Assembly: GCA_027596195.1 (NCBI GenBank)
Contig: JADGJG010000050.1
Coordinates: 1-59,569 of the forward strand
From: Podochytrium sp. JEL0797
Lineage: Eukaryota > Chytridiomycota > Chytridiomycetes > Chytridiales > Chytriomycetaceae
Length of the DNA: 59,569 bases
Reading direction: 5' to 3'
Shown: positions 5,332-59,569 of the stretch, piece by piece
Layout of the letters: every line of letters starts with the position of its first letter
How positions within the stretch are numbered: position 1 is the first letter of the stretch
Translations under genes and position numbers: made by a program
Notes under the pieces: generated by a model
What the model was told of the DNA's origin: nothing
What the model saw: the letters and a program-made list of their open reading frames with translations, nothing else
Databases searched by the model: none

Positions 5332-5461
5332 AAGAGACTTTTATATTGTTAATTTCCCAGTCAGTGAACATCTCAACTTCAAAAACTTGGCCATTCCAAA
5401 CTCCTGCCGCGCCCGCAAAACAGAGCCACCGTAAGACGGCTTCCAGAAATTATGAACGCAT

Positions 5462-10209: not shown

Positions 10210-10252
10210 ATAAACGCCTTCGCAAAGGAAATTTTTTGGAAATCTTGCTCAC

Positions 10253-26373: not shown

Positions 26374-27693
26374 TCATGCAGTTTTGGAATCCCGCAAGCT
26401 AGCCAAATGAGCTCTCCGCGCGAGAGGCGGCGCAATTCCCAGCGCCTTCCTCCTCGAAGTCGAATTGCCATCCAAATACGGCCGCTCCCCAAGCGACGCC
26501 GCACGATCCCCCAACCGACTAAACTCATCAACATCGAAATCAACGGTCGCCGTATGATAAGAAGAGCGGTTATCCCAGACAGCCACATCGTTTTTGTCCC
26601 AGCGGAAACGGACTTGCACGTCGTGGTTTTGCACGGTGAGGTTGAACAAGTGGGTGAGGACAAGGTCGCTTTCGTCTTTGGAAAGTTCATTGATGCGCAG
26701 CGAAAACTCTTTGTTGGCGAACCTGAACGCGTATTATTTTCGTTGTCAGTGAAACACAACAACAGTGAAGCGTGGAACAAACGAACTCACACTCCCTTCC
26801 ATCCAGTAACCGGATTCGTCCGAATCACTGGATGCACCGCCGTCAAATGAACCCCAACATCCTCAGGGGCACCACGTGGGCCAGGATGGATCTCCGCCAA
26901 CCCCGCTTCAGCCAACTTGAGGAACCCAACTCCGCTGTGGGTCGCCGTCAAGCCCTCCAAGAATTTCTGGAAAGCGGGGGAGAGACGGTCGTAAACCTCG
27001 TACGCACTGGCCCAGAGCGTGTCGCCGCCTTCGGGTGGAGTGTCGCGAATCTTGAGGACGGCGTAGTCGGATGGAATGTTTTCGAATGTTATGCTGTCAA
27101 TTGCAAGTAAGTGGTTAAAGACTGGAAAATGATGAGAAACGGAAGCGCTCCAGAAACTCACTCAGAATGCCACTGCCTCGAATGTAACTCCGACCCAAAC
27201 CCATACGCCTCCCAACGAACCTTTTCCGCCTCCGAAGAAATCACGTAATTCTTGTTTCCAAGTTCGTCTGATTCATCACTGATGGGGTGAGCATGGAGTC
27301 CTGAGGTGCTTGGCTTTCCGGAAGCACGGCCGAGGCGGTCAGCGAATTCCTTTTGCTCGTCGAATGTGATGTCTTGGTTGCGCAGGAAGACCACGTTGCG
27401 TTCGGAGACGAGGATGGCAAAGTCGAGGAGGAGTTCGTCCGAATTGGGCGCGTTGAGTAAATCACGGATTTGGATTCTGGGAATGTGAGGGTGAAGTTAG
27501 TTTCACTCTAGGGAGAGACAAAGTGAACTCGTAAGTACCCTTTCTCGAACTCCGTTCCAATGTGCGGTTGGAGTTTGGAGCTCTTGTAGAGAGCATCCAA
27601 CGAGAAGTTTCTCTTCTTTGGTTGGACCTTTAGCGTCTGGTTCTTCAACGACAAGGTGGTGGCAACTTGGGCGAGTTGTTCAGCAGGTGACAT
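26374..27693 (-). CDS. TauD/TfdA-type Fe(II)/2-oxoglutarate dioxygenase, intact copy
   Basis: Four exons, 27693-27539, 27476-27162, 27093-26791 and 26722-26374, encode 373 residues. The metal triad can be seen: His and Asp in W-H-S-D-I-T-F-E, where the Asp codon is split by the second intron (GA|C), and the distal His in DNRSSYHTATVDFD. The Arg that binds 2-oxoglutarate lies in the following GERPYLDGNSTSRR segment. GGDTLWASAYEVYDRLSPAF and AVHPVIRTNPVTGWKGVF are further family blocks. The family oxidises taurine, other sulfonates or related substrates; the exact substrate is not readable from sequence. No targeting signal. Related copies lie at 54.9-56.1 kb (broken) and at the right edge. Confidence 0.9.
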
Positions 27694-39294: not shown

Positions 39295-40896
39295 TTAGCA
39301 ACGACTCATGTATGAAAAACACAACTGAGTTGGATCCGCACACTGCGAATTTCCAATACACGCAGGCAATCCACAAGTTTCATTCGCATACGTCCAGGTT
39401 GTGCCACACCGCTGAGGCCACATGGTGTAATCCGTAAACGGTCCCTGCGGCGGGTACCCACTCCCCACACGTTTCCCATCCAACGCGTTACGAATCGTTT
39501 GAGAGTAGGTTGAAAACGCGGGATTCGAGGAGGACACGTCGTACACGGAGATTCCGTAAAACTGCGAATCGGTCATGACGCCGTCCACCACCGCTTGGAG
39601 TTGTCCCGCGTTCAAGAATCCACCTGTGATGGCGGAGGTGGCGTCACCTGCCAATCCAATCACGATGGGTCCCGCGTAATAAGTTTTCCAAACGTTGAAG
39701 TTGAATCCGAAGGGGTAGCTGGTTAAAAAGGAGAGGGTCAGTATTAAGGACAAGGAAAAACAAAAATGGACTTACGAGCACGATGGGTTATTGTAGAATT
39801 GAATAACCAAGTAATCCAAAAGCTCAGGATGTGCTTGAATGACCGGCCCGGTGTTGCTGTCTCCAAGTCCTCCATTCAAATAACACTGCGGAACTGCAGA
39901 ATACAAGCTCTTGGGGGACAGTTTCCTGAGCGTTTGAAGCATGATAACTTGCTCTTGCGTGTAAGCCGGGCCCGTCTTTTCCACATCGAATTCAACACCG
40001 TCGAGAATCGCGTTTCCAAAGGGACGTTGGCTCGAATTTCCTTGTAGGAACGAATTGAAAAGGATATTGGCGTACTTGACGCCGTCTCCGGGAATGAATT
40101 GGTATGGAGAGTGCATGTCACCGCCGATGGAAAGGATAACCTTGATTCCCTTGGATTGACAGTGTTGAATGTCGGCACCAACTTGGGTGAATACAGACGG
40201 CTGGAAAAATCAATTAAGCACAGTTACATACGCTTCAAATAGTGGAATAATGGCGTATGCTTACATCAACAGGCCCGCCAATTAACGTGCTCGTCGTAGA
40301 AACAACGCCACCCGCAGAAACGTCATACCGTCCAATGCTGGACAAATCAAGCCCCCAGTGTCCATCGCCACCTCCAAAATCGTACAGAAACGCAATATTC
40401 ATGGTTTGATAGTATCCCAAATCGCAGTAGGATGCGAGGCCTTGTTGTTCGACCGTGGCTGGGCGCGTGTTTTGACCACCCGCAATGCTCACACCATTGC
40501 CTGATTTTTCGATTCATTATTGTCGTATTCTAAACTGTATCACATACCTATTGCGGATTGACCCCAGTAACCAAAGAGTTTTTTACCCGTAGCAGAATTC
40601 GGGGTATTCCCTGAATTTGTGGTTACACTCGGTGGCACGACAGGTGCCCCAGTTCCTGTTACTGCCGGTGACCCAGCTTCTGTAGTAACAGGAGCTGCAG
40701 CGCCAACTGCAGTGTTCCCAGAGGCATTGGACGGACTATTACCAAGGTGGCTTTGCGTCACGAAATACCCAATCAGGATGGCACCGGCCACCAGTACGGC
40801 CACGATGGCCACAATAAGGACCGTCAAGTTTCGTCGTTGCACTTTCTTGATGGCAGCGTGATCGGGCGCTTTGCCGCCGGTTTGTGTTGGAGGCAT
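39295..40896 (-). CDS. Membrane-anchored GH18 chitinase, copy 1
   Basis: Four exons, 40896-40548, 40500-40265, 40200-39776 and 39718-39295, encode 477 residues (an ATG at 40929 would add 11). A basic cytosolic start and one N-terminal helix (LTVLIVAIVAVLVAGAILIG) make it a type II membrane protein; a Ser/Thr/Pro-rich stalk follows. The catalytic domain is class III-like GH18: KLFGYWGQSAIGNG, VILSIGGD and the active-site strand ILDGVEFDVEKTG. The proton-donor Glu is present, but the usual DxxDxDxE reads D-x2-E-x-D-x-E. A Cys-rich end (ANETCGLPACIGNSQCADP) may be a small binding module. It should act on chitin at the cell surface or wall. Confidence 0.9.
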
Positions 40897-41009
40897 TTTT
40901 TTTGGGGTTCTTCCTTTCCTTCCATTCATTCATTGGAATTCTTGGCGTTCCCATCTTTCCTCTATTTTCAATGTAACTCTAAAACACGGAAAGCGGATCG
41001 TCTATGAAA

Positions 41010-42480
41010 TCAACATGGGCTCATATACGAAAAGCACATCTGATTCTTGTCCGCACACCCCCCATTCACACACGCCGGAAGCCCACACGTCTCATTCGCC
41101 TGACTCCAAGTCCCCCCACATCGATGAGCCCACTGCGTATCCAACGTGGCCGGGCCTTGAGGAGGGTACCCGCTCCCCACCCGTTTCCCATCCAACGCGT
41201 CGCGAAGAGTTTGGGAGTACGTTGAAAACGCGGGGTTCGATGAGGACACGTCGTACACAGAGATTCCGTAAAACTGCGAATCGGTCATGACGCCGTCGAC
41301 GACGGCTTGGAGCTGTCCCGCGTTCAGGAAGCCGCCTGTGATGGCGGATGAAACGTCTCCTGCGAGTCCAATCACGAGAGGTCCCTTGTACAGCGCTTTC
41401 CAGGCGGCAAAGTTGAATCCGAAGGGGTATCTGATCGAAAGCGAAAGGCGTCAATGTCAAGGAAATGGAACATTCAGAGAAACGAGCAACGTTCCACACT
41501 TACGAGCACGTGGGGTTATTGTAATATTGAATAATCACATAGTCCAGTAGCTCAGGATGAGACTGAATAATCGGACCAGTGTTGAGATCTCCGAGCCCTC
41601 CATTCAAATAACACTGTGGAACGGCCGAATACAAGCTCGTTGGAGAAAGCTTCTTGAGCGTCTGGAGCATGATGATCTGCTCTTGAGTGTACGCAGGGCC
41701 CGTCTTTTCAATGTCGAATTCAATTCCGTCGAGAATGGCACTCCCAAACGGCCGCGTGTTCGAACTTCCTTGCAGGAACGAGTTGAACAGGATGTTTGCG
41801 TACAATGCGCCGTCTCCATTTGCAAAGTGGTACGAAGAATTCTTGTCCCCGCCAATTGAAAGGATAACCTTGATGTTGTTGGCCTGGCAGTGAAGAATGT
41901 CTTGTCCGATTTGGAGGAACGCCGCCAAATCTCCCGATGCAACTCCAGCAGCAGACACCTGGTAACCCCCACTCCTCGCGAAATTCAACGCCCAGTGACC
42001 ATCGCCTCCTCCAAAATCGGACAAGAAGGCCAAGTTCATTGTCTGGTAGTACCCGAGGTCGCAATAATAGGCAAGGGAGTTTTGGGCAACATTTGACACC
42101 CTCGTTCCGACTCCAGTCGGTCCAACTCCGTTCCCTGTTGCACGTGATCAGTGTTTAATCAATCCAAATTGAGGCAACCAACCAATTGCGTTTTGCCCCC
42201 AATATCCGAACAGCTTCTTCTTTCCACCACCAGTGACTGGAGGTGTGGTTGCATTCGTGGCTCCAGTTGCGGAGGCGACAGGGGCAGAGGCGGTTGCCTT
42301 GGCGGGAGCGGAGGAATTTGATGCGGCAGACGCCGACGAGTCCTTCTTTGTGGCAAAGACGCCAATCAGAGTCCCCGCGACAATCAGAACGGCCACAACA
42401 ACTCCAATAATGATTGCTCGCTTGCGTGGGTTGGTGGAGGGCACCGGCTGCTCCTTGACGTCAACTGCGGGTTCGGCCAT
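41010..42480 (-). CDS. Membrane-anchored GH18 chitinase, copy 2
   Basis: Three exons, 42480-42183, 42134-41504 and 41430-41010, encode 449 residues. Domain order as in copy 1: N-terminal anchor AIIIGVVVAVLIVAGTLIGV, Ala/Ser/Thr-rich stalk, KLFGYWGQNAIGNG, VILSIGGD, ILDGIEFDIEKTGPAYTQEQ and the Cys-rich end. The intron that interrupts copies 1 and 3 before the VGADIQHC region is absent, and the segment there is diverged (ASGDLAAFLQIGQDILHCQA). The first intron donor is GTTGGT. Confidence 0.9.
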
Positions 42481-42585
42481 CGAATTTTTTGATTAATTTT
42501 TTGATTGATTGTTTGCGAGATTTTTGTGGAGGAGCCATTCGCCACTAAAGGAAGGAAGGAGGTATTATAGAAATTTAATGAGAAG

Positions 42586-44166
42586 TCAACAAAACGATAA
42601 ATATGAGAAACAAAGTTGATTCGAGCCAGCACACCCCCCATTCACACAAGCAGGCAAGCCACACGTCTCATTTGCATAGTTCCATGTGCCGCCACATCGA
42701 GTCGCCCACTGATGCTCCGTGGTAAAGTTTCCTTGCGGAGGGTACCCGCTGCCCACAACTTTCCCATCCAACGCATCACGAATCGTTTGAGAATAAGTCG
42801 AAAAAGTCGGGTTGGAAGAGGAAACATCGTACACAGAGATGCCATAGAATTGCGAATCGGTCATGACTCCATCCACAACGGCTTGGAGTTGCCCAGCGTT
42901 CAAGAATCCACCCGTGATGGCCGAGGTGGTGTCACCGGCCAATCCAATCACAAGAGGTCCGTTGAAAAGAGTTTTCCAGATATCAAAGTTGAATCCGAAG
43001 GGGTAACTAGTGGGTGACAATTGGAAAAAATGGATGTCAGAACACAAGGAAAGTTTACAAGAACATCCCACGAAAGAAACAACAGCGCTCCACACTTACG
43101 AGCACGTGGGGTTGTTGTAATATTGAACAATAACATAGTCAAGCAGCTCGGGGTGTTGTTGAATCACCGGGCCCGTGTTCAAATCCATTCCAACACCGTT
43201 CAAAAAACACTGCGGAACCGCCGAATACACGCTCGTGGGAGAAAGCTTCTTGAGCGTCTGTAGCATGAGGATCTGCTCTGCAGTGAAAGCGGGACCCGTC
43301 TTTTCAATGTCGAATTCAATGCCGTCGAGGACCGCGTTTCCGAAAGGCCGTTGACTCGAGGTTCCTTGCAGGAACGAGTTGAATAGTATGTTTGCGTACA
43401 TGGCGCCGTCTCCGGGAATGTATTGATACGGAGAGTGCATATCGCCGCCGATTGAGAGAATAACTTTGATTCCTTGGGACTGACAGTGCTGAATGTCGGC
43501 GCCAACTTGGGCGAACCCGCTGGCCTGAACAGAGAATGGGATCAGAACAGAACTGCAGCAGTGACACGAAATTACTCACATCGATTGGTTTCCCGTTCAG
43601 GGTCGTGGAAACAACGCCAGCCGCAGAAACGTCATACCGTCCGAGATTGGACAAATCCAGCCCCCAGTGACCATCGCCACCACCGAAATCATGCAAGAAC
43701 GCGATATTCATGAACTGATACAGGCCTGTGTCGCAGTAGGATGCAAGACTGTTTTGCTGAGCTGTCACAGGGCGTGTATTGGTTCCCGTTGGGCCGACAC
43801 CGTTGCCTTCATGAATTCGAAATTAGCGCCATGGCTGATAGCTTCACATAGGAAATTGATTCGAAACAAACCAATTGCCGACTGGCCCCAATATCCAAAG
43901 AATTGTTTTGCCGTGGGTTGGTGGGGCGACGGTTTGTTGCCGCCACTGGTTCCATTGTTGGTCCCCGATCCACCGGCATCACTTGTTCCGGTGCCAGATG
44001 CTCCGCCGCCAACTTGCGGTGCCGAGGAGGACTTGTTCTTGGCCACAAAGACTCCGATCAATGATCCAGCAATGATCAGAGCCACAACGGCTCCTCCGAT
44101 AAGGAAGGCCCGGCGGCGATTCTGGTTGGCACCCGTTCGGCCGTCTTTCAATTCAGCAGCAGCCAT
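42586..44166 (-). CDS. Membrane-anchored GH18 chitinase, copy 3
   Basis: Four exons, 44166-43872, 43806-43580, 43524-43100 and 43006-42586, encode 455 residues. It begins MAAAELKDGRTGANQNRRR, then a membrane helix (AFLIGGAVVALIIAGSLIGV) and a Gly/Ser-rich stalk. The catalytic blocks are FFGYWGQSAIGNG, VILSIGGD and VLDGIEFDIEKTG; the Cys-rich end is ANETCGLPACVNGGCAGSNQ. It is closer to copy 1 in intron positions. All three copies are head-to-tail on one strand, 90-115 bp apart. Confidence 0.9.
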
Positions 44167-44393
44167 GCCTTTGATAAGTTTCTGTTTCGGTTCGGCTTTT
44201 CCCACGCAATCTCCAATCCGAAAAACGCGAATGAAATTTTTTCGGGATTTGATTACAACGAATTTTCAAATTCTCCTTGTATTCCTCTCCATATTTTTGT
44301 TTCATTAGAAGGCATTTCCTATTTGTCACGCTTCCTTAATTCTGTGTAGAAATCCGGCCATATGCCAGCCACATCCTTTTTTCAAATCAAAAA

Positions 44394-45407
44394 ATGCAGT
44401 GGCAAAACGTCCCCTACCTCCGTGCCCACGCCGAGGAGCCGAATCAGCGCCCCGAGCAGTCCTCCAAGTACAATATCCTGGATCTCTACCTTCCCGCAGG
44501 AGACCTGAGAACATCAACACCCCTTCTCGTCTTCATCCACGGGTGAGACCAATTGATCTTGGCCATCGCAATCTGACTCCTGCTCAGTGGTGCCTGGCGT
44601 GCGAGCCGCCCCAGCAACTTTAGCGAGATTGCCAGGCAGTTTGCGGATCGCGGCTTGGCCGTGGCCCTTGTTGGATATCGCTTGTCCACAGTCGAGCCGG
44701 GCGAATCGACCAGCCGGATTGCGCATCCAAGCCATGTAAACGATGTTGCTGCAGGCGTGGCCTGGTTGTTTGCCGCTGGCGGAGGGCTTCTCGATCGTTG
44801 CGATGATGAGCCCAGCAACGCTGCCGCTCAGGCTCTGCAAGCGTGGAATCCGCAAAACTTGTTCGTCTCGGGACACTCGGCGGGTGCCCAGATTGGCTCC
44901 TTCTTGGCCCTCGATGCGAACTATATTCAGAACGCCCTGGCCTCCCTTCTCGGTCCTTCGAAAACCCCGGAACGCGCGTTCTGGATGTCCAAAATGCGCG
45001 GTTTCATCGGAGTCGAAGGAATCTACGATATTCCTCTTATTGTCAAGAACTATCCGACCTACAAGGATTGGTTCATTGTGGCGGCCTTCGGTGAAGAACC
45101 CGGCAGCGGATGGGTTCGAGGGTCTCCCGCTCTGTGTCAAGCCTTCAACCCACCCCTTTCCTCAACGATCGCGCACCTGGTCCCTCATTTGGTGATTCAT
45201 TCGCCCGACGACGAATTGGTTGACGTGATTCAATCCAGAAAGTGGTTTGATCTGCTGTGTGGATTCCGGGCCGCCACGCCGGGGGCTGAAAACTGGGAGT
45301 TGGATTTCGAAGCCGAAAAATTGGTTGGGAAGCACGACGATGTCATTTTGAGCAAGGAGTTCTTTGATTATGTGTCGGAATGGATCGAAAAACGCGTTGC
45401 CGTGTGA
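44394..45407 (+). CDS. BNA7-like: Kynurenine-formamidase-like alpha/beta hydrolase
   Basis: Two exons, 44394-44542 and 44588-45407, encode 322 residues. The oxyanion-hole motif HGGAWRAS is split by the intron; the nucleophile elbow is VSGHSAGAQIGSFLAL; the acid lies in HSPDDELVD and the His in LVGKHDDV. NILDLYLPAGD precedes the hydrolase core, as in arylformamidases. The likely reaction is hydrolysis of N-formylkynurenine in tryptophan breakdown to NAD, but other carboxylesterases share these motifs. No signal peptide. Divergent from chitinase copy 3 (227 bp). Confidence 0.8.
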
Positions 45408-45590: not shown

Positions 45591-46004
45591 CTACGCTGCA
45601 TTCACGAATGCCATTTGCTGTTGTTCTTGCTCCTGCTGTATTGGAGGGCCTGCTACGAGACCAACTCGCATCCGCTTCCGCCGCCGGCGCCAGAAAACCC
45701 AACCGACGCACCAGACGCAGAAGGCCAGCAGACTGGCGATTCCTCCCGCCATCACGGCGGTGACCGAGAATCCGGTGAATGAAATGACGGCATTCGCGGG
45801 GCAGGTTGAATTCTGCAGCGAGGCAACGAGGTCGGTGCATGACGAGGAACAGTCATTGACGTTCGAAACGGCGCCGAATCCGATGCCGTTGCACTGGCAG
45901 CCACAGATCCAGAGGGACGCAGACGTGGGGTGGGGGAGAGACAGAGTCAAGGCGAGTACGAGGATCTGAGCTGTTGGTCGCCGTTGGCATCGGGGAATCT
46001 CCAT
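45591..46004 (-). CDS. Six-cysteine single-pass membrane protein, array member 1 (diverged)
   Basis: 137 residues, single exon. Signal peptide (ILVLALTLSLPHPTSAS), then ectodomain CGCQCNGIGFGAVSNVNDC with SSSCTDL and TCPANA, then one membrane helix (VTAVMAGGIASLLAFCVWCV) and a strongly basic stop-transfer WRRRRKRMRVG. The tail is Gln-rich (QEQEQQQ) and lacks the LDPxQVVVV end of most members. Pattern C-x-C-x-C-N...C-x3-C...C-P identifies it as the outermost copy of the array. Topology: type I, cysteine domain outside. Family not recognised. Confidence 0.75.
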   Translation of the reverse strand: MEIPRCQRRPTAQILVLALTLSLPHPTSASLWICGCQCNGIGFGAVSNVNDCSSSCTDLVASLQNSTCPANAVISFTGFSVTAVMAGGIASLLAFCVWCVGWVFWRRRRKRMRVGLVAGPPIQQEQEQQQMAFVNAA

Positions 46005-46237
46005 TTGCCGTTTGGAAATGACTTTTGAGTGGAATATCTAAAATGCCAGAATTCAAGAAATCAAAAAGATTAAAGTGACTGTTGGTATAGAATCTCAAGA
46101 AGGGGGGGAATGGGGCTTGAAATTTGAATCTTTCCGATCACGGACCAAGCATCCTCGAACCAGCGAACCAAAACCTCAAATGCAATCTAATGTTTAATAT
46201 GATATGTTATGCTGAATTTCACCACGCGCTCGAACCG

Positions 46238-46618
46238 TCACACGAGCACCACCATTTGCTGCGGATCCAGCTGCCCCGCCAATCCCGTCGGCCCAATTTT
46301 CCGGTTCTTTCTCTTCCGCGCCAACAAAACAACCACAACACCACATCCAGCAAAGACGATCGCGCCGAACGCACATCCAATCAACAACATATCGGCACTC
46401 CCGGATTCCAAGTGCATAATTTCAGCTTCTGGTGAGCAAAGGAACATCGTTTCGGCGTCAATGTACGTTTGAAATAGGTCTCGGCACTCGAACTCGCAGT
46501 TTTGAGCATTGGCGATGGTTCCGAAGAGGAGGTTGTTGCAGCTGCAGCTACAGAGTAAAGAGAGCGCTGAAGCTTGCTGGACGGTGTGGACCAGGATGAG
46601 AAGGACGATTTGCCACAT
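46238..46618 (-). CDS. Six-cysteine membrane protein, type A, copy 1
   Basis: 126 residues. The start is the ATG of MWQIVLLILVHTVQQASALS, a typical signal peptide. Ectodomain LLCSCSCNNLLFGTIANAQN then CEFECRDLF and CSPEAEIMHLES; helix ADMLLIGCAFGAIVFAGCGV; tail ARKRKNRKIGPTGLAGQLDP then QQMVVLV. About 390 bp including the N-terminal half and promoter are identical to the copy 957 bp further on. A TTGAACCTTGATC motif lies about 95 bp upstream of the start. Confidence 0.8.
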   Translation of the reverse strand: MWQIVLLILVHTVQQASALSLLCSCSCNNLLFGTIANAQNCEFECRDLFQTYIDAETMFLCSPEAEIMHLESGSADMLLIGCAFGAIVFAGCGVVVVLLARKRKNRKIGPTGLAGQLDPQQMVVLV

Positions 46619-46849
46619 GTTGTGATGCCGTTTTGCCGTTTGAGAAGGAGATTTCAATCGTGTGTAAAAGATGAGTCTAAATGGTTAATCAGGTTCGATC
46701 GCTCAATTTTGATCAAGGTTCAAGCCCATCGGCCATGCGCCACTCGTTTATCTGATGACGCATCAGGTCCGATCCTTCATCAAAGCTTAACAACCGCTTC
46801 CAATTAGACAGACACATCGAATTAATTATTGCACAATAATTTAAAGAGA

Positions 46850-47130
46850 AATACACATAAAATAATCACGCCGTTTTGGATTCATTTGACCACTGCTCCC
46901 CATCACCTTATTTTCCTTTCTTTTCGTTTTCGCACCAACGAAAGCCGCAAACACCGACAGTCCGATCGCAAATCCAAGTATTTCTTGAATTTGGAGAAAT
47001 CTGATGCACGTCAATTGCACTGAAATTACTACTGTATTCGGAAAAGTTTCTGATAAAATCAAGCGAATATTCTGGCAGGCACTGTTCAAGTCTCCCAAAA
47101 AGTTGAGTGCTTGCAACAGCATGGGCCACT
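46850..47130 (-). pseudogene. Type B array member, decayed (unit 1)
   Basis: Recognisable only by its membrane and tail region (EILGFAIGLSVFAAF, then KTKRKENKVMGSSGQMNP), matching the intact type B gene at 48773-49159. The signal peptide and most ectodomain cysteines are lost and the frame is broken. Part of the TM-to-tail junction is deleted compared with unit 2. Confidence 0.7.
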
Positions 47131-47194
47131 CAGCGCCCTCAGGTGGCCTCAAAGAAGAGTTTTGGGGTGTAACACGACAACCTAATTACGGTAA

Positions 47195-47575
47195 TCAAGC
47201 CCCAACAATCACCACCATTTGCTGCGGATCCAATTGCCCCGCCGTCGGCCCAATTTTTCGGTTCTTTCTCTTGCGCGCCAACAAAACAGCCGCAACACCA
47301 CATCCAGCGAAAGCAATCGCGCCGAACGCATATCCAAGCAATAACTTATTGGGACTCCCGGATTCCAAGTGCATAATTTCAGCTTCTGGTGAGCAAAGGA
47401 ACATCGTTTCGGCGTCAATGTACGTTTGAAATAGGTCTCGGCACTCGAACTCGCAGTTTTGAGCATTGGCGATGGTTCCGAAGAGGAGGTTGTTGCAGCT
47501 GCAGCTACAGAGTAAAGAGAGCGCTGAAGCTTGCTGGACGGTGTGGACCAGGATGAGAAGGACGATTTGCCACAT
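47195..47575 (-). CDS. Six-cysteine membrane protein, type A, copy 2
   Basis: 126 residues. N-terminal half identical to type A copy 1; the membrane helix region differs (PNKLLLGYAFGAIAFAGCGV) and is instead identical to copy 3, and two residues (GL) are missing before AGQLDPQQMVVIVGA. The mosaic pattern suggests gene conversion or unequal exchange between copies. Signal peptide, six-Cys ectodomain and basic tail are intact. Confidence 0.8.
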   Translation of the reverse strand: MWQIVLLILVHTVQQASALSLLCSCSCNNLLFGTIANAQNCEFECRDLFQTYIDAETMFLCSPEAEIMHLESGSPNKLLLGYAFGAIAFAGCGVAAVLLARKRKNRKIGPTAGQLDPQQMVVIVGA

Positions 47576-47814
47576 GTTGTGATGCCGTTTTGCCGTTTGA
47601 GAAGGAGATTTCAATCGTGTGTAAAAGATGAGTCTAAATGGTTAATCAGGTTCGATCGCTCAATTTTGATCAAGGTTCAAGCCCATCGGCCATGCGCCAC
47701 TCGTTTATCTGATGACGCATCAGGTCCGATCCTTCATCAAAGCTTAACAACCGCTTGCAATTAGACAGACGCATCGAATTGATTACGGCACATGAATAAT
47801 AAATACACATAAAA

Positions 47815-48090
47815 TTCACGCCGCAACCAATTAATTGCCCCGGATTCATTTGACCAGTTTCTAATCATTCCCACTTTCCTTCCTTTTCGTTTTCGCGCTA
47901 ACATTGCCACGGCAAAAGTGAAAGCCGCAAACACCGACAGTCCGATCGCAAATCCAAGTATTTCTTGAATTTGGAGAAATCTGATGCACGTCAATTGCAC
48001 TGAAATTACTACTGTATTCGGAAAAGTTTCTGATAAAATCAAGCGAATATTCTAACAGGAACTGCTCTAGTCTCCCAAAAAGTTGAGTGC
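47815..48090 (-). pseudogene. Type B array member, decayed (unit 2)
   Basis: Retains EILGFAIGLSVFAAFTFAVA then MLARKRKGRKVGMI, but the ectodomain reads without the CxCxC motif and the frame is broken at both ends; no signal peptide. Upstream sequence is nearly identical to the decayed copy in unit 1, so decay began before the latest unit duplication. Confidence 0.7.
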
Positions 48091-48175
48091 TAGCAACAGC
48101 TCGGGCCACTCAGCTCCCTCAGGTGGCCCCAAACAAGAGTTTTGGGGTGCAACACGACAACCTATTGTACGGTAA

Positions 48176-48556
48176 TCAAGCCCCGACAATCACCACCATT
48201 TGCTGCGGATCCAATTGCCCCGCCGTCGGCCCAATTTTTCGGTTCTTTCTCTTGCGCGCCAACAAAACAGCCGCAACACCACACCCAGCGAAAGCAATCG
48301 CGCCGAACGCGTATCCAAGCAACAACTTATTTGGACTCCCGGATTCCAAGTGCATAATTTCAGCTTCTGGTGAGCAAAGGAACATCGTTTCGGCGTCAAT
48401 GTACGTTTGGAAAAGGTCTCGGCAATCGAACTCGCAGTTTTGAGAGTTAGCGAAGTTCCCGAATTGAAGATTGTTGCAACTGCAGCTGCAGAGTAACGAG
48501 AGCCCTGAAGCTTGCTGGGTGACGTGGACCAGGATGGGAACGACCATTTGCCACAT
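48176..48556 (-). CDS. Six-cysteine membrane protein, type A, copy 3
   Basis: 126 residues starting MWQMVVPILVHVTQQASGLS. Ectodomain LLCSCSCNNLQFGNFANSQN, CEFDCRDLF and CSPEAEIM; helix and tail as in copy 2 (AGQLDPQQMVVIVGA). Diverged from copies 1 and 2 in the N-terminal half but identical to copy 2 in the C-terminal half. TTGAACTTTGATC lies about 75 bp upstream. Confidence 0.8.
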   Translation of the reverse strand: MWQMVVPILVHVTQQASGLSLLCSCSCNNLQFGNFANSQNCEFDCRDLFQTYIDAETMFLCSPEAEIMHLESGSPNKLLLGYAFGAIAFAGCGVAAVLLARKRKNRKIGPTAGQLDPQQMVVIVGA

Positions 48557-48772
48557 GCTTTTAAAAAAGGATTTAAATCCTCGTCTAAAAACGAGCTGAA
48601 AAGGGAGGTAGGGTTCCGCCGCAAGATTGATCAAAGTTCAATCCCATGGCCAACGCGATATCAGAGACGCATCACAAGATCCTCCATCAAAGCTCCAGAC
48701 ACATCGAATTAATTATTGCACAATATTGTAAAGACAAATAAACAAGTGAACAGTCAAGTCGCGACAAATAAA

Positions 48773-49159
48773 TCACGCCGCAACTACAACAACCAACTGC
48801 CCCGGATTCATTTGACCAGCTCTTCCAATCACTCCCACTTTTCTTCCTTTTCGTTTTCGCGCCAACATTGCCAAGCCAAAAGTGAAAGCCCCAAACACTG
48901 CCAGTCCGATCGCAAATCCGAGAATCAAAGAGCCGGCATCGAGATACTCTTCGTACAGAATGTAAGCATCTGGTGGGCAATATCCAGTGTTGGCGTTCAC
49001 ATTTTGCTGGTAAAGGTCAAGGCAGGCAGTTTCGCAGTGGTCCGGCTTATCAAGGGTCGCGAAAAGATAATTATTGCAGATGCAGTTGCAGATCGCCGAA
49101 ACGGATGGTACGAAGACGGACAGGAGGATTATCGCAAACCCCAGCAGTCGAGAGAGCAT
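48773..49159 (-). CDS. Six-cysteine membrane protein, type B, intact
   Basis: 128 residues. Signal peptide LLGFAIILLSVFVPSVSA; ectodomain ICNCICNNYLFATLDKPDHC, ETACLDLYQ and YCPPDAYILY; helix LILGFAIGLAVFGAFTFGLA; tail ARKRKGRKVGVIGRAGQMNP then GQLVVVVAA. It is the functional counterpart of the two decayed type B copies. ATGAACCTTC lies about 50-60 bp upstream. Confidence 0.8.
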   Translation of the reverse strand: MLSRLLGFAIILLSVFVPSVSAICNCICNNYLFATLDKPDHCETACLDLYQQNVNANTGYCPPDAYILYEEYLDAGSLILGFAIGLAVFGAFTFGLAMLARKRKGRKVGVIGRAGQMNPGQLVVVVAA

Positions 49160-49349
49160 GGTTGCAGTGTGATTCGGAGTTGGAATTTAGCGCTTGTATC
49201 GCGGTGGCTTTTGAAGGTTCATTTTCAGCCACCCCCACTTCCCGTGACCCGCGTGAGAAGTGATATTTCGGACGACATCATATATTAAGTTGTAATTCAA
49301 TCGATATAAATAATAGGGGAGAACAGGAGAATCGATCATTAATCAATAA

Positions 49350-49733
49350 TCAAGACCCAACAACCACCACCACCTGGTTCGGATCCAACTGCCCTGCCAA
49401 CCCCGTTACCCCAACCTTTCTATTCCTCCGTTTCTTTGCCAACATCACGCCCCCGACGGCACATGCAAAAAGCAACATCGACCCAATTGCACTCCCAACA
49501 AGTATTGCATCGACATTGCCCGATTCAAAGTGAATGATGTCCGCATCCGATGGACAGGGGGCAGTTTGTTTCTCGAGCTGTATTTGGAACATGCCCCTGC
49601 ATGCCAATGGACAGTTGTCGGTGTTGGCAATTGTGGCAAAGATCATCGCGTTGCATGTGCAACTGCAGAGAAGGGAGCTGGCAGTTGCCGACTGAAGACA
49701 GAGGATCAATACGAGAAGCGGTAACTGCGGCAT
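49350..49733 (-). CDS. Six-cysteine membrane protein, array member
   Basis: 127 residues. Signal peptide LPLLVLILCLQSATAS; ectodomain LLCSCTCNAMIFATIANTDN, CPLACRGMF and APCPSDADIIHFES; helix AILVGSAIGSMLLFACAVGG; tail AKKRRNRKVGVTGLAGQLDP then NQVVVVVGS. A clear full-length member between the type A and more distant copies. CTGAACCTTGTCA lies about 80 bp upstream. Confidence 0.8.
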   Translation of the reverse strand: MPQLPLLVLILCLQSATASSLLCSCTCNAMIFATIANTDNCPLACRGMFQIQLEKQTAPCPSDADIIHFESGNVDAILVGSAIGSMLLFACAVGGVMLAKKRRNRKVGVTGLAGQLDPNQVVVVVGS

Positions 49734-50040
49734 GTTTTTTTTTGCGGCTTTTGGATGGGGCTTTGACAGCCCGTTAACGACAAATCGGCGAAATCTTAGA
49801 CATTATTAATTGACAAGGTTCAGGGAAAGTCGAACCCAATTGTAGCGACCCTTTTTCTTGGAGCTGATGCAAAGATGTGGTAACGATGAATCCAGGTGAG
49901 CTGATCGAGGAGGTCGAAAAGCGTGACGGGAGAATGAAGGAAGTCCCCCACTTATTCCAAATGGGTATGGTAATTAGAAAACTCAATTATCGATCGTATT
50001 AATTACTAAAACATTTCTACTAATGGAAAAGGGAATGGTA

Positions 50041-50442
50041 TCACGCCGCTGATACAACCACAACCACCTGATGTGGATCCAACTCTCCAGCCCTCCCCAC
50101 AACTCCCACCTTCCTCCCCCTTCTCTTCCGAACCAGAAAGATAACACCGCATACGCATAAAGCAAATACAACGATCGCCACTCCACTCGCAATGAGAATC
50201 GGATCCGAATTTCCCAAGAATTGAAAGCTCGTGATGTTGGAATCAATCGGACACACATTGGCAATTTCGTCAAATCGTTGTCGGAACAGGTCGGTACATG
50301 AGAGTTGGCAATCGTCGGCATTCGTGATGGATCCGAAGCGGCGTGCGTTGCATTCGCAGATGCAGAGAGTGGAAGGTGTGGCGGTGGTGGATTGGAGCAG
50401 TAGGGCCAAGAGGAAAAGCGGATATTTGGATTGCGCGAACAT
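50041..50442 (-). CDS. Six-cysteine membrane protein, array member
   Basis: 133 residues. Signal peptide YPLFLLALLLQSTTATPS; ectodomain LCICECNARRFGSITNADDC, QLSCTDLFRQRF and VCPIDSNITSF; helix ILIASGVAIVVFALCVCGVI; tail VRKRRGRKVGVVGRAGELDP then HQVVVVVSAA. All landmarks of the family are intact. Confidence 0.8.
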   Translation of the reverse strand: MFAQSKYPLFLLALLLQSTTATPSTLCICECNARRFGSITNADDCQLSCTDLFRQRFDEIANVCPIDSNITSFQFLGNSDPILIASGVAIVVFALCVCGVIFLVRKRRGRKVGVVGRAGELDPHQVVVVVSAA

Positions 50443-50637
50443 TTTTAGGGTGTTTTATATTGAAGTTCGTGTGCGTTTCTTTTCGACAAATCGTGAAAAA
50501 GGGTTCAAATGGGCGGGGGAACGAGGTACGCGCCTCACTAGATGAGGCCAGATGATTGCGGAGCAAAAAGTATGTTGTCTACACAATATATTCTATATGC
50601 AGTAATAAATTAAGATCTTTCGAGAGTACTCCGTTTC

Positions 50638-50955
50638 TCAGCCTGCAACTCCCACCTTCCTTCTCCTCCTCTGTCGAATCAGAAATACAAGACCACCCAG
50701 GCACAACCCAAACACAACAATACCCATGCCACTCGCAATGATAATCGAATTCACATTGCTCACAAATTCATGGCTTGTGATGATTGAATCACTCGGACAC
50801 ACTTTCTTGATTTCAGAGGTCGGAAACAGTTTAAAGCGCTGGATGCAGGAGTGAACGGAGAGGAGACAAGATTCGCCAATCATGATCGGCCCGAATCTCT
50901 TAGAGTTGCATTTGCAGATGCAGATGGGAGGCCGGGTGGTGGTATTTTGAAGCAT
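50638..50955 (-). pseudogene. Array member, truncated and probably decayed
   Basis: 105 codons. The CICKCNSKRFG motif, CPSD, helix (IIIASGMGIVVFGLCLGGLV) and RQRRRRKVGV remain. However, there is no signal peptide before the first cysteines, the C-x3-C pair is disrupted (SCLLSVHSC) and the tail stops before the LDPxQVVVV end. Probably a dead copy of the neighbour at 50041-50442. Confidence 0.65.
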
Positions 50956-51172
50956 TTTCGATAATCAATCATTATTCGAATTGGGTTTGAAGACTGGTCG
51001 AACCCGTTCATTATTAACGAGGTAGGGACGGAAAACCGACCTCGCCGCACAAATGATGATGACGGAGCAGAAAACGCGAGAAACTCGCCAAGATCCTGAC
51101 CTTTTCCACCTCATTCAATCAAATGTACACCGGTTAATTTATTTGGAGAGGACGAAACGAAGATGTGACATC

Positions 51173-51574
51173 TCAAGCCTGATCTGGTGCTATAACAACA
51201 ACTTGCTGCATATTCGGCCTTGTAATATCTCCCATAACTCCAATTTTCCTCGCCTTGCGCTTCCGTTTCAGAATCATGACCCCAAACGCCGCAGCCCCAC
51301 ACACAATCACCGCCCCACCAATCGCCCATCCCGTCATCAACGTATCGAATCCATGGAAATGTCGAAACGTGATCTCAGCATCAACCGGGCAAACCCCCGT
51401 TTTAGACTCCAACGAGAGGAGAAACAGCCTCGTGCACGCGTCGAGGCAACTCTCGACATGCACGACAGGTCCGAATCGTTTCGCATTGCAGTGACAACTG
51501 CAGAGTAGGGTGACGGCGCTTGCTGATTGGACGAGAAGGAGCGCGAGAAGGAGGCTTGATGGCTGCCATGGCAT
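51173..51574 (-). CDS. Six-cysteine membrane protein, array member
   Basis: 133 residues. Signal peptide PSSLLLALLLVQSASAV; ectodomain LLCSCHCNAKRFGPVVHVES, CLDACTRLF and GVCPVDAEITFRHF; helix LMTGWAIGGAVIVCGAAAFG; tail KRKRKARKIGVMGDITRPNM then QQVVVIAPDQA. The tail spacing is slightly longer than in other members. Confidence 0.8.
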   Translation of the reverse strand: MPWQPSSLLLALLLVQSASAVTLLCSCHCNAKRFGPVVHVESCLDACTRLFLLSLESKTGVCPVDAEITFRHFHGFDTLMTGWAIGGAVIVCGAAAFGVMILKRKRKARKIGVMGDITRPNMQQVVVIAPDQA

Positions 51575-52174
51575 TTTTGCACCCTATTGCTGTATCTGTG
51601 CAGGTTTTTGCGCGCTTCGAACTCTTGGAACAACCAAAAGCGCGATGGCGCGCAATTTGTCAACGCAGCTTCCTTCCCGCCCTCTTCAATCACTTTTTAG
51701 TATCAATTGCACTTGCATCACTTGGTTTGGAGGCCTCGAATGATGGTCAGAGAACTGAGGCGCTCGATCAGCAATCACAAGCTTCCTCAAGCCCCATCGA
51801 GGCATTTAAAAAATTTCGCCGGATGATTGGCTTCAGAGATTATTAGATCTTTGAATATTTGTTTTTCAGGCCGCGCAGTAATAAATGAGAAACGCGCGCG
51901 AGCTTTTGAAAACTTCGACAAAATAATGTCCGCGATTACTGATTGGCTATTGCTGGAGATTTCTCAACGGGATTAAGAAAAGAGAGGGACAGATGAATGT
52001 CTTTTGACGCGATATTCGCCGCGTTAGATTTTTAAACCCTGCCATTTCTATTATTACAGGGACTGTCATTCCATTGGAAAGACGATTCGTTTTACCAAAT
52101 AATTCATAATCACAAACAGGGGGAATCACGGGATTGATTTAAAAAATAAATTCGCGATTAAATAACTAATTACA
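51575..52174. other. Spacer within the array, no gene seen
   Basis: About 600 bp without a family motif on either strand. Plus-strand open frames here have no recognisable features. Confidence 0.5.
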
Positions 52175-52552
52175 CTATAGTAGCAGGTAAGATACCCCGT
52201 CACTTCCTCCACCTTCCCATCCCTCTGCGACATCCACGACTCCCTGCCAAAACCACCACCGCAATGACAACCCCGCAACAATCACCAACCCCACTGCCAC
52301 CCCAATCAACAGCGCCTCCACTCCAAACTCGACCAACGAAATCTTGACATCAAGAGGAAGCTTCGGCAGCGCGGTTGATTTGGGCTCGTGGTCGTGAAAG
52401 AACGGGACACAACCAAATCCGCACTCATGGGGCTTGCTGTCGTTTCTTAGGAATCCGACTTCGAATTCACGATTCGCTGGACGTCGGAAACTGCAGATCC
52501 TGGTCGGTGCGTTGGCAGATTTGACGCATGCAATGAGGAGGAAGCGGAGCAA
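52175..52552 (-). pseudogene. Highly diverged array member lacking an in-frame start
   Basis: A frame of 125 codons with a hydrophobic start (LLRFLLIACVKSANA), a few cysteines (ECGFGC), a membrane helix (ALLIGVAVGLVIVAGLSLRW) and an acidic/Gly end. The CxCxC motif is absent. The nearest ATG (MKKNLL) is out of frame by one base. Position, orientation and layout fit the array, so it is probably a decayed or strongly diverged copy. Confidence 0.5.
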
Positions 52553-52665
52553 GAAGATTCTTCTTCATTTTTCTTTATGTGAAAGGTTAAAAATTGGCAT
52601 TTAACTTTTTGTATTAAGAATACGGAAAATAGAAACGGTACATGGATGTGTGAGAACAGGGGAGT

Positions 52666-53010
52666 TCATAAACTTTCCTCCTCCACCACAAAACTCGTCG
52701 TCCTCCGCCTCCGCACAAATATCGCCAATCCAATCAAAACACTCCCGACCAGTACGGCAACTATCATCGCAGACCCAATAATGTGAGTAATGCTCATCTC
52801 ACTTGACGAGATGTCCGAATCGGGCGGACAAATGGTATTGCTCTGGGTGCATTGTTGCAGAAACATTTGGGTGCAAGAAGAGTCGCAATCGGGCACGTTC
52901 GAGATGGTCCCGAAATAGTGTGTGTTGCAGTGGCATTTGCAGACGAATGTGAATGCTTGTGAGGACGATAGGAGAATTGTAAGGAGCAGAAAGCGGAGGA
53001 GCTTGTGCAT
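52666..53010 (-). CDS. Six-cysteine membrane protein, array member (diverged tail)
   Basis: 114 residues from the ATG of MHKLLRFLLLTILLSSSQAF, a good signal peptide. Ectodomain VCKCHCNTHYFGTISNVPDC, DSSCTQMFLQQC and ICPPDSDISS (one extra Cys); helix IIGSAMIVAVLVGSVLIGLA; short basic RRRRTT and an acidic end VVEEESL in place of the LDPxQVVVV tail. Confidence 0.75.
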   Translation of the reverse strand: MHKLLRFLLLTILLSSSQAFTFVCKCHCNTHYFGTISNVPDCDSSCTQMFLQQCTQSNTICPPDSDISSSEMSITHIIGSAMIVAVLVGSVLIGLAIFVRRRRTTSFVVEEESL

Positions 53011-53326
53011 CAACGTAGATTTTGGAAATGGATATAATTTGGATCCCAATCTCTTGTTTCTTTTTCTCGTTTATCTTTAGGTTCGACAGTGATTAGGGAT
53101 CTTGTTGATGTGAAGTTGTTCCGGGAGAAGGCTGGAAAAAATCAAATCATGGAAAGAAGGGGGGGGGGGGGGTGGGGGGTGATGGCGGTCCTGAATAACT
53201 TTCACAAAATTACTACAAAATCGAATCGAAAAAAAAAATTCGGTGCGGACTCGCCAATTTTCTCATTAATTTTATTAGAATATTAATGACAAGTCTGCTT
53301 CTGTAGCATAAATCAGTCAGCTACCA

Positions 53327-53857
53327 TTAGCCGCTCGAAAGCAAAAATGGCATCTCACTCGACCCACTGCCGCCACTCCTCACCGACTCCACATCACCAA
53401 TTCCATTCCACCCCTCTCGCGCATCCTCTACTACCACCAGCGTATGCTCAAGTTCCTCAGCAAAAGTAGCAACCCCTTGCCGCATCATCGGCGCCACCCC
53501 GACCACGACCCCACCCCTTGCTACATTATCCTGATGCATCACCCTCCGCTTTCGCCTCCGTCTCACGAGCACAGGCACCCCAAAGCAAGCTGAAACCAAA
53601 ACAACAAAGCCAACTACGCCCCCTGGAATCAGAAACGAGTCGTTTTCGGCGTACAATTCCAACCCCGGTGGACATGTTGAGGAAGCGAGTTGAAGGGCGA
53701 GGCTCGTGCAAGTTGCGGAGCAATCGGAGGCTGGGAGAGTTGCGAATTGCGTATGGCCACAATAACAGGCGCAAAGATAGGCGGTTGTGGGCTGGCAGCA
53801 CAAGACAAGGACGAGGATGAATGGGAATGACGCCAGGTATCTTATCGATCGTTGCAT
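53327..53857 (-). CDS. Six-cysteine membrane protein, array member with long tail
   Basis: 176 residues from the ATG of MQRSIRYLASFPFILVLVLC. Ectodomain LCACYCGHTQFATLPASDC, SATCTSLAL and TCPPGLEL; helix GGVVGFVVLVSACFGVPVLV; RRRRKRRV stop-transfer, then a cytosolic tail of about 75 residues rich in Gly, Val, Ser and acidic residues. The tail is unlike other members and could carry a different interaction site. Confidence 0.75.
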   Translation of the reverse strand: MQRSIRYLASFPFILVLVLCCQPTTAYLCACYCGHTQFATLPASDCSATCTSLALQLASSTCPPGLELYAENDSFLIPGGVVGFVVLVSACFGVPVLVRRRRKRRVMHQDNVARGGVVVGVAPMMRQGVATFAEELEHTLVVVEDAREGWNGIGDVESVRSGGSGSSEMPFLLSSG

Positions 53858-54360
53858 GCTCAAGCCGATTCTGAAGATTTTTTTCTCAAATTATTTCTTG
53901 GCAAAAAAAACGTGAGCTTGACCGTGCAAAACGGAGATGAAATGCAAAATGGAGATTCGCATGATTAGACACGTTTCGCAAACGAAAATTTGGCTGCCAA
54001 TATTAATGTCGTTGCCAATTTCCTCCCAACGCCGTCGCGACGCTCCCAGAAATTCGTAGCCATCCGTCAACTCTCGCGTCGAGAACAAGTTGCAACTGGA
54101 TCTCTGTGGACCTTGCGAGCAAAAATTAGCCTCCTGCAGCTGTTGCAGCAAGCAGAGCAACCTTTAAGCGGCGTTTTTTGAGTCTGCGGATGTTGGCAAC
54201 ACAGAACGAGCTCCTCGACGTGGTTACTCGTGACCACATCAATATTTGAAAGATTCATTCCAATTTACCTTTATTCGAAGCAGAAACGAAAAGCGAAACA
54301 CCACGCGCGCAGCCTTCCGATTCCATCCATAAAACAAGAAAGGCGGGACTTCAATCTATT
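53858..54360. other. Spacer, no gene seen
   Basis: About 500 bp between two array members. Contains short open frames only; no family motif. Confidence 0.5.
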
Positions 54361-54606
54361 TCACTTGGTCAACTTGCGAGCCACGAGAGCTCCCGTGAAC
54401 GAGATTGCAACGGCCACCAGGAATCCACCGAGGGCGTAGAAAGTGTAGTTTTCATAAGAGACGGCGGAAGAGAAGGTGCATGGGGTTGAGGTGTTGGCGA
54501 GGGCAGCGCTAAAGGCCAGTTGCATGCAGGCAGAGGCGCAGTCAGATGCGAAAGCGGAGGCGAACTTGGTGTTGTCACATGAGCATGCACACCACGAAGC
54601 GGGCAT
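54361..54606 (-). CDS. Array member, last copy; 5' exon unresolved
   Basis: The frame covers WCACSCDNTKFASAFASDC, ASACMQLAF, TPCTFSS, a membrane helix (FYALGGFLVAVAISFTGALV) and a short ARKLTK end. It lacks a signal peptide when started at its own ATG. A splice acceptor (CGCAACAG) just upstream would add ..SASLPLSNMPAS, and a donor GTGAGT near 54741 may belong to a first exon, but I could not place a convincing signal-peptide exon. Confidence 0.6.
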   Translation of the reverse strand: MPASWCACSCDNTKFASAFASDCASACMQLAFSAALANTSTPCTFSSAVSYENYTFYALGGFLVAVAISFTGALVARKLTK

Positions 54607-54878
54607 GTTGGATAGAGGAAGTGATGCAGAGGCTGTTGCGTGGAGTTAGAAGAGTCGTTTCGAGAGTGACGCCGAGAGAAAAACTGAGTACGGATTGGAG
54701 TCATTTGTTTTTCATTTTCGAAGGAAGCGTTGTACACTCACGAGTTCTGCTGGAAATCATCCTGATCATCCTGATCAGAAATCTTCAATGACATGTTCTG
54801 GCGAAATGGTGGAATACAAAAAATATCGTCCAAACAACTGTACTTATATCGCTTTATTCTTCAAAACTGCCAAAGGAA

Positions 54879-56136
54879 TCACGCATTTTTGGAAGCGTTA
54901 AGACCCGCCAAGTGCGCGCGACGCGCCAATGGGGGCGCGATTCCAAGCGCCTCGCGACGCGAAGTCGAGTTGACATCCAAATAAGGACGCTCCCCAAGCG
55001 AAGTGGCACGCTCCCCGACACGCGGAACATCCGCATCGAAATCAAATGTGGCCGTGTGGAGCGAAGAGCGATTGTCCCAGACAGCCACGTCGTTGGTATT
55101 CCAACGGAACCGAACTTGCAAGTCATGGTTCTGGAACACGAGCTTGAACAAGTGTTGGAGGACAATGTCGCTTTCATCTTTCGAAAGTTCGTTGATGCGT
55201 CTCGTGAAGCCCTCACTGACGAAACTATAAAGGGGTTTTAGAAAAGTGAAAAATGGAAAAAATACTCACACTCCCTTCCACCCAGTGACTGGATTCGTAC
55301 GGATAACCGGATGAACCGCTTCCAATTCAGTCCCAACATCTTCTGGGGCACCGCGGGGACCCGGATTAATTTTAGAGAGTCCAGCCGCGGCGAGTCTCGC
55401 GAACTGTCGACCATCATGAGTAGCCGTCAGACCTTCCAAGAATTCGCATATAGAGACGCTCGTAGACTTCGTACGCGCTGGCCCAGAGGGTGTCTCCACC
55501 TTCGGAGGGAATTTGCTTGAGCTTCAAAACGGCGTAATCTGAAGGAACTGGCTCGAAAGTGATGCTTGGAGAAAAAACGAGCCGGTGAGCAAGTGAAGGC
55601 GACGGAGAAAGAAAGGAATACTCACTCGGCATGCCACGCGATGGAATGAAATTCGGACGACTCGGGATTCAACTGGACACGTCTCTTGGTGTTTTCGGAC
55701 ACAATGGCCAGATTCGTTTCGGACCCTTCGCTTGTTGGGTGAGTGTGAAGACCCGAGGTGTTTGGCTTTCCGGAAGCGCGGCCAAGACGGTCAGCGAATT
55801 CCTTCTGCTCCTCAAAAGAGATGTCTTGGTCGCGCAAGAAGACCACGTTGCGTTCGGACACGAGGACGGCAAAGTCGAGGATGAGTTCATCCGTGTTGGG
55901 AGCGTTGAGAAGGTCGCGGATTTGAATTCTGGGAACGTGAAGTTAGTTTAATGGCAGAAAAACAGAAAAAATATCACCCACCCTTTCTCAAACTCCGTTC
56001 CAATGTGAGGTTGGACCTTGGAGCTCTTGTAGAGAGCATCCAGCGAGAAGTTTCTCTTCTTTGGTTGGACCTTTAGGGCGTGATCCTTCAACGACAAGGT
56101 GGCGGCGACTTGGGCGAGTTGTTCAACAGGGGACAT
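54879..56136 (-). pseudogene. Second TauD-type dioxygenase copy, frameshifted
   Basis: The four-exon layout of the intact copy at 26374-27693 is kept, including the split Asp codon of W-H-A-D-I-T-F-E-P and the distal His block DNRSSLHTATFDFD. After ASAYEVYERL the sequence has a net 8-nt deletion relative to the intact copy (around 55445), throwing the following EFLEGLTATHDG block out of frame. Everything else is well preserved, so inactivation appears recent. A sequencing error in this stretch cannot be excluded. Confidence 0.7.
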
Positions 56137-59309: not shown

Positions 59310-59569
59310 TCATTCCGTTTTGGAAGCCTTGAGGCTGGCCAAATGAGCACGACGCGCAAGCGGAGCCGCAATTCCCAACACCTCGCGACGCGACTTCGAG
59401 TTGGGATCCAAATAAGGACGCTCTCCAAGAGAAGCCGCACGCTCCCCCAACCGAACATATTCATCAAAGCTGAAATCAGCCGTGGCAGCATGGTACGAAG
59501 AGCGGTTGTCCCAGACAGCCACATCGTTCTTGTTCCAGTGGAAACGGACTTGCAAGTCGTGGTTTTGAA
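59310..59569 (-). CDS. Third TauD-type dioxygenase copy, C-terminal part only
   Basis: Partial: the gene continues beyond the right edge. The visible last exon encodes LQVRFHWNKNDVAVWDNRSS, YHAATADFSFDEYVRLGER and the C-terminus ARRAHLASLKASKTE, parallel to the last exons of the other two copies. The distal metal-binding His (SSYHAAT) and the following Arg-containing block are present. Whether the rest is intact cannot be seen. Confidence 0.85.
   Translation of the reverse strand, partial: QNHDLQVRFHWNKNDVAVWDNRSSYHAATADFSFDEYVRLGERAASLGERPYLDPNSKSRREVLGIAAPLARRAHLASLKASKTE

What the first reader, a model, noticed from the sequence alone, without database searches (positions are those of the whole stretch)
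45591..54606. Undescribed array of small six-cysteine single-pass membrane proteins
About 15 copies (roughly 10 with all landmarks) lie head-to-tail on one strand over 9 kb. Each has a signal peptide, an ectodomain of only ~50 residues with C-x-C-x-C-[NGD]-x3-F-[AGS]...C-x3-C...C-P, one membrane helix, a polybasic stop-transfer, and in most a conserved cytosolic end (RKVGVxGxxGxLDPxQVVVV). The ectodomain is variable between cysteines while membrane and tail are conserved, which is the layout of a receptor or surface-variation family sharing one intracellular partner. I recognise no named family. Function (surface recognition, adhesion, zoospore contact sensing) is inference.
Basis: partly seen in the sequence, partly recalled or inferred. 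Interest (0 to 1): 0.9.

Follow-up and report, generated by a model that had tools for sequence, protein, structure and literature searches.

The report
Unannotated chytrid six-cysteine membrane-protein array
A water fungus carries, at one spot in its genome, a row of about fifteen related genes and gene remnants for tiny cysteine-stapled membrane proteins that match no family we could search; their function is not known.

Summary
The array is real. Window 45591-54606 (minus strand), a contig of the chytrid Podochytrium sp. JEL0797, holds 15 family units: 11 open intronless frames, one truncated copy, one frame-broken copy, two membrane/tail relics. All 11 open frames share C-x-C-x-C...F...C-x3-C...C before one membrane helix; 10 of 11 have a signal-like N-terminus (hydropathy). 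Five of the 11 used as genome probes found convincing relatives only on this contig. A 5.8-billion protein set gave no relative, though it holds this contig's neighbouring gene, so the array is probably missing from public annotation. AlphaFold2 gives the ectodomain a strand-strand-helix-strand fold (pLDDT 88) without a significant structural match. The one informative pair shows purifying selection on the ectodomain (12 synonymous, 5 nonsynonymous changes, p=2.6e-6), and a gene-conversion mosaic is visible: against a fast surface-variation family. 'Membrane conserved, ectodomain variable' is not borne out; only the tail stands out, with its motif in 6 of 11 copies plus one variant. Best guess, by inference: small co-receptor or adaptor-type subunits sharing a cytosolic partner. 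Not Shisa/STMC6: cysteine order and PY motif tested, not met.

The parts
45591..46004 (-). copy c1: signal-like N-terminus, six-Cys ectodomain, helix, RRRRKR stop; no tail motif
46238..46618 (-). copy c2, all landmarks and tail motif
46871..46981 (-). relic of a c5-like copy: helix and tail only
   Evidence: tblastn row, 51% to c5, E 1.2e-6
47195..47575 (-). copy c3, all landmarks and tail motif; identical to c2 from about -150 to +198 nt of the start codon
47863..47961 (-). relic of a c5-like copy: helix and start of tail only
   Evidence: tblastn row, 85% to c5, E 1.3e-13
48176..48556 (-). copy c4, all landmarks and tail motif
48773..49159 (-). copy c5, all landmarks and tail motif
49350..49733 (-). 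copy c6, all landmarks and tail motif; the sequence used for structure prediction
49515..49679 (-). ectodomain of c6, predicted strand-strand-helix-strand fold, pLDDT 88.3
50041..50442 (-). copy c7, all landmarks and tail motif
50638..50955 (-). truncated copy d8: cysteines and helix kept, most of the signal peptide and the tail end missing
51173..51574 (-). copy c9, landmarks with a variant tail
52175..52564 (-). frame-broken diverged copy (matched stretch about 52271-52552)
   Evidence: E 2.8e-4 to c6
52666..53010 (-). copy c11: short different tail
53327..53857 (-). copy c12: long different tail
54361..54606 (-). copy c13: no signal peptide in the open frame, very short tail

Best explanation
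A single-locus family of small type I membrane proteins in Podochytrium sp. JEL0797, grown by tandem duplication, loss and gene conversion and kept by purifying selection. The signal peptide delivers a roughly 50-residue ectodomain to the lumen or outside, where it is predicted to fold as strand-strand-helix-strand, probably stapled by three disulfides. A helix (GxxxG in 7 of 11, so perhaps pairing) and a basic stop follow, then in 7 of 11 copies a conserved or variant tail that probably docks one cytosolic or coat protein. Most likely they are small co-receptor or adaptor-type subunits: the ectodomain holds a partner or ligand and the shared tail couples it to one sorting or signalling machine. 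SHOWN: gene family, landmarks, purifying selection on one independent pair, conversion-like mosaic, restriction to this contig for the five copies used as probes. PREDICTED: the fold. INFERRED: disulfides, pairing, surface location, partner, adaptor role (that last step alone about 0.35).
For: 11 open frames with seven invariant residues. c3/c4 ectodomain: 12 synonymous on 34.5 sites, 5 nonsynonymous on 133.5, Fisher p 2.6e-6; their membrane plus start of tail 3 and 0, p 0.015. Confident ectodomain model, pLDDT 88.3, pTM 0.67. Tail identity 0.57 against 0.38 ectodomain and 0.30 membrane in five distinct long-tailed copies. Similarity falls with distance along the array, rho -0.56, p 2e-4; conversion-like mosaic c2/c3/c4. 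Convincing genome matches only on this contig.
Against: No transcript or protein evidence. Selection measured on one independent pair; other pairs near saturation. Where c2 differs from c3 and c4, in membrane plus start of tail, changes are 6 synonymous and 7 nonsynonymous (p 0.09) and 7 and 7 (p 0.04), so constraint there is weaker. Four of 11 open copies lack the tail motif or its variant, so a shared partner cannot hold for all. Full-length model poor (pLDDT 68.6). GxxxG was not tested against chance. No upstream motif shared beyond chance.
Confidence: 0.5

Rival explanations
1. A variable surface-recognition family (contact sensing, self/non-self or substrate recognition): each ectodomain binds a different ligand, the tails share one signalling partner.
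For: Tandem array with conversion; deep divergence among most ectodomains, 0.26 identity outside Cys/Phe; tail more conserved than ectodomain in long-tailed copies.
Against: The measurable ectodomain pair is under purifying selection; c2 and c3 ectodomains are identical; the membrane segment diverges as much as the ectodomain. No strain data.
Confidence: 0.2
2. Small structural or adhesive surface proteins (or secretory-pathway coat/packing proteins) kept in many copies for dosage, without signalling; the tail serves only delivery (C-terminal hydrophobic residues are a known ER-export signal in other proteins, recalled and seen in listing only).
For: Homogenisation of neighbouring copies; basic stop and short Val-rich tails; four of 11 open copies do without the tail motif.
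Against: The LDPxQ part of the motif is more specific than a bare hydrophobic end; most copies have diverged far more than dosage copies would need.
Confidence: 0.2
3. A decaying array without present function.
For: 4 of 15 units are broken; c13 lacks a signal peptide; no shared upstream motif; no deposited protein matches.
Against: 11 frames stay open with invariant cysteines; c3/c4 differ mostly at silent sites in the ectodomain.
Confidence: 0.05

Closest known systems
Shisa-like / STMC6 superfamily (Shisa, CYYR1, WBP1, VOPP1, TMEM92)
   Same: Short single-pass proteins with signal peptide, six-Cys ectodomain and cytosolic adaptor tail (passages of PMC5578492)
   Different: Those have C*C*CC*CC and PY motifs; here no CC in any of 11 ectodomains and no [LP]PxY in 11 of 11; CYYR1 profile only E 0.35 in 1 of 11
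CKAMP / Shisa6-9 auxiliary subunits
   Same: Signal peptide, cystine-rich ectodomain, one helix, conserved hydrophobic end that docks a cytosolic protein (passages of PMC4733035)
   Different: Eight cysteines, 399-541 residues, true C-terminal PDZ motif; here six cysteines, 81-176 residues, and the Val run is usually not the very end
TNFRSF12A-type small receptors (PF12191)
   Same: Small Cys-rich ectodomain on one helix; weak row E 0.012 for c1 only
   Different: 16.5 bits against a cut-off of 24.9, 1 of 11 copies
De novo designed miniprotein gEEHE_02 (5ji4)

Membership tests
Shisa-like / STMC6 | Six cysteines in the order C*C*CC*CC | tested here: not met
   11 of 11 read C-x-C-x-C..C-x3-C..C, none has CC in the ectodomain (pattern of the family from passages)
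Shisa-like / STMC6 | PY motif ([LP]PxY) in the cytosolic tail | tested here: not met
   0 of 11
Shisa-like / STMC6 | Aromatic motif in the membrane helix | not tested
   named in a passage; no profile of it at hand
Shisa-like / STMC6 | Profile match to the Pfam models of the superfamily | tested here: not met
   Only CYYR1, E 0.35, 11.7 bits against cut-off 31, in 1 of 11
Surface-variation (antigenic) family | Ectodomain evolves faster than the rest or under diversifying selection | tested here: not met
   Ectodomain 0.36 against membrane 0.26 mean identity over 11 copies; c3/c4 dN/dS about 0.1, one independent pair
Surface-variation (antigenic) family | Variation between strains or switching of the expressed copy | not testable with these tools
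   one genome, no transcripts
Receptor family with one shared intracellular partner | Conserved tail across copies | tested here: inconclusive
   Motif in 6 of 11, variant in 1, absent in 4
Known fold among solved structures | Significant structural match of the ectodomain model | tested here: inconclusive

The most novel reading that the evidence does not exclude
A chytrid receptor/co-receptor system not yet described: a natural disulfide-stapled strand-strand-helix-strand miniprotein used as a minimal extracellular recognition module on a pairing helix, expanded at one locus, missed by annotation, with a shared tail docking one cytosolic machine, possibly serving contact sensing in wall-less zoospores.
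Probability: 0.2. Interest if true: 0.8.

Novelty: new variant of a known kind. Interest (0 to 1): 0.47.

Why it matters
If expressed, this is a whole gene family that annotation of an early-diverging fungus seems to have missed, with a compact predicted fold that had no significant match here. It would give a small, testable set of candidate cell-surface or sorting proteins in chytrids, and a warning that 'no homologue' in chytrid protein sets depends on whether short intronless genes were predicted at all.

Tried and rejected
Homologue search with the 11-copy profile (7995 candidates scored, none at E 0.001) and with c6 alone (9 candidates, none at E 10). The method needs shared 5-residue words and a length of 0.55-1.75 times the query, so distant, longer or fused relatives are not excluded. 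PDB by sequence: full profile 13 rows, best E 0.085 (an apical membrane antigen 1 chain), most others aligned mainly on the helix; ectodomain profile none at E 10. Viral contigs with c6: 15 pattern matches, none a relative. Weak Pfam rows, all below cut-off: BCLP in c2, c3, c4 (best 5.9e-4, 19.9 of 29.4 bits, c4), Stevor in c11 (7.3e-4, 19.6 of 25.4), CEND1 in c7 (0.0028). Ectodomain alone, 10 of 11 copies (c2's not given): best E 0.047, and BCLP on c4 only at 0.24. Taken as chance.

Members elsewhere in the genome: 5 of 11 open copies used as queries (limit E 10). Rows outside the window's contig, all inspected: C18 E 8.6e-4, antisense to two small frames, one weakly WBP-1-like; C518 E 0.002, tail side of a leucine-rich-repeat-like frame; C300 E 0.056, a long multi-helix frame; C297 E 0.92, no convincing frame; C172 E 0.27, a glycine/arginine-rich frame with a zinc knuckle on the matched strand. 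The frame readings are mine. None shows the C-x-C-x-C module.

Papers: searches listed nothing that by title or abstract start describes such a family in chytrids. I saw passages only of PMC7537106, PMC4733035 and PMC5578492; all others as listings. This is no proof that it is not in print.

Full report
WHAT IS THERE. The window is a whole contig of the chytrid Podochytrium sp. JEL0797 (Chytridiales, Chytriomycetaceae): the neighbouring kynurenine formamidase exon (44577-45404) matches at 100% a protein filed for that organism from a contig of exactly 59569 bases (taxonomy). The genome held here has 24.4 Mb in 995 contigs and carries IFT57 and chitin synthase above their cut-offs, as expected of a flagellated fungus. 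Between 45591 and 54606, all on the minus strand, lie 11 open intronless frames of 81-176 residues, one truncated copy (50638-50955), one frame-broken diverged copy (52175-52564) and two membrane/tail relics (about 46871-46981 and 47863-47961): 15 units. Six cysteines and one phenylalanine are invariant in 11 of 11 open frames. A six-frame scan of the whole window for the start of the pattern gives 13 matches, 12 of them this array.

ANATOMY. By hydropathy 10 of 11 open copies have a signal-like N-terminus; c13 (54361-54606) has none in its open frame. The ectodomain reads C-x-C-x-C-x4-F-x8-C-x3-C-x(11-15)-C, with x7 after the Phe in c12 and c13. A hydrophobic helix, a K/R-rich stop and a tail follow. 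The tail motif [LM][DN]PxQ[VLM]VV is in 6 of 11 (c2-c7), with a variant in c9, and is absent from c1, c11, c12, c13. GxxxG stands in 7 of 11 membrane segments, in six of them at the same place (not tested against chance). The tree splits c1, c12 and c13, which sit at the two ends of the array and lack the tail motif, from the other eight with support 95/95; c13 is a long branch whose place the program calls unsure.

EVOLUTION. Similarity falls with distance along the array (Mantel rho -0.56, permutation p 2e-4). c2 and c3 are 100% identical from about 150 nt before to 198 nt after the start codon and then 88-93% over the next 150 nt and 74% at the end of the gene, while c3 and c4 are 82-84% alike in the first 150 nt and 94-100% later. 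That is the mosaic left by gene conversion or unequal exchange. The bodies of c2, c3 and c4 are spaced 957 and 981 nt apart, and the relic-bearing spacers repeat at 980 nt. In the c3/c4 ectodomain there are 12 synonymous changes on 34.5 sites and 5 nonsynonymous on 133.5 (Fisher p 2.6e-6); in membrane plus start of tail 3 and 0 (p 0.015); in the signal peptide 0 and 8 (p 0.18). Against this, c2 differs from c3 and c4 in membrane plus start of tail by 6 and 7 (p 0.09) and 7 and 7 (p 0.04). So the ectodomain of one independent pair is under purifying selection; other pairs are too old to measure.

It was said that the ectodomain varies while membrane and tail are conserved. Over 11 copies the mean identities are ectodomain 0.36 (0.26 without the invariant residues), membrane 0.26, tail 0.43; over five distinct long-tailed copies (c2, c5, c6, c7, c9) 0.38 (0.28), 0.30, 0.57. 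Only the tail stands out, and not in all copies. The variable-surface reading loses its main support; the idea of a shared tail partner keeps some.

RELATIVES. Five of 11 copies used as queries over the whole genome find convincing relatives only on this contig; the five weak places elsewhere were inspected and rejected. The protein collection of 5.8 billion gives nothing for the profile or for c6, although it holds the neighbouring gene of this very contig. The array's own proteins are therefore probably missing from the deposited annotation, or present only inside longer predictions, and the same may be true of relatives in other chytrids: 'species-specific' cannot be claimed. Pfam gives no row above its cut-off in 11 of 11 copies (for c1, for the rest), and the PDB nothing significant by sequence.

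HOW IT PROBABLY WORKS. Shown: a constrained, multi-copy, single-locus family with a secreted-side module, one helix and, in 6 or 7 of 11, a conserved tail. Inferred: pairing through the helix, surface or endomembrane location, partner binding through the tail. I favour small co-receptor or adaptor-type subunits over a variable antigen family, at modest confidence. The plan resembles Shisa-like adaptors, but membership fails on cysteine order and PY motif. Elsewhere in the genome (contig C18) two small frames with one hydrophobic stretch and a PPxY-type motif exist, one of them weakly WBP-1-like below cut-off; they are distinct from this array.

VERDICT. Real, constrained as far as one pair can show, undescribed as far as I could search, ordinary in its mode of growth, unknown in function.

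Noticed in passing
window 5456-8004 and 10214-12826 (+), with a diverged third unit from 14198: Tandem, nearly identical channel-like genes (by reading) with a cyclic-nucleotide-binding exon at 13328-13918; the membrane exons gave no Pfam row.
   Followed up: partly
window 39295-44265 (-): Three tandem GH18 chitinase-like genes, each with weak GH18 rows below the Pfam cut-off and, by reading, an N-terminal membrane anchor in at least two.
   Followed up: partly
window 26331-27161, 54854-55632 and about 59400-59567: TauD/TfdA dioxygenase pieces at the first two places; the third looks alike by eye in the opposite frame only. They flank the array side of the contig.
   Followed up: partly
L070 1037-1453 and 2136-2687 (-), contig C18 of the same genome: Two similar small single-pass frames with PPAYP / PPPYP motifs, one weakly WBP-1-like (E 6.7e-4, 20.7 of 28.1 bits), the other without a row: possible PY-adaptor genes in a chytrid.
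   Followed up: partly
window 48500-48556 against 47519-47575 (signal peptides of c4 and c3): The signal-peptide region differs by 8 nonsynonymous and 0 synonymous changes, unlike the rest of the gene; not significant alone (p 0.18).
   Followed up: no
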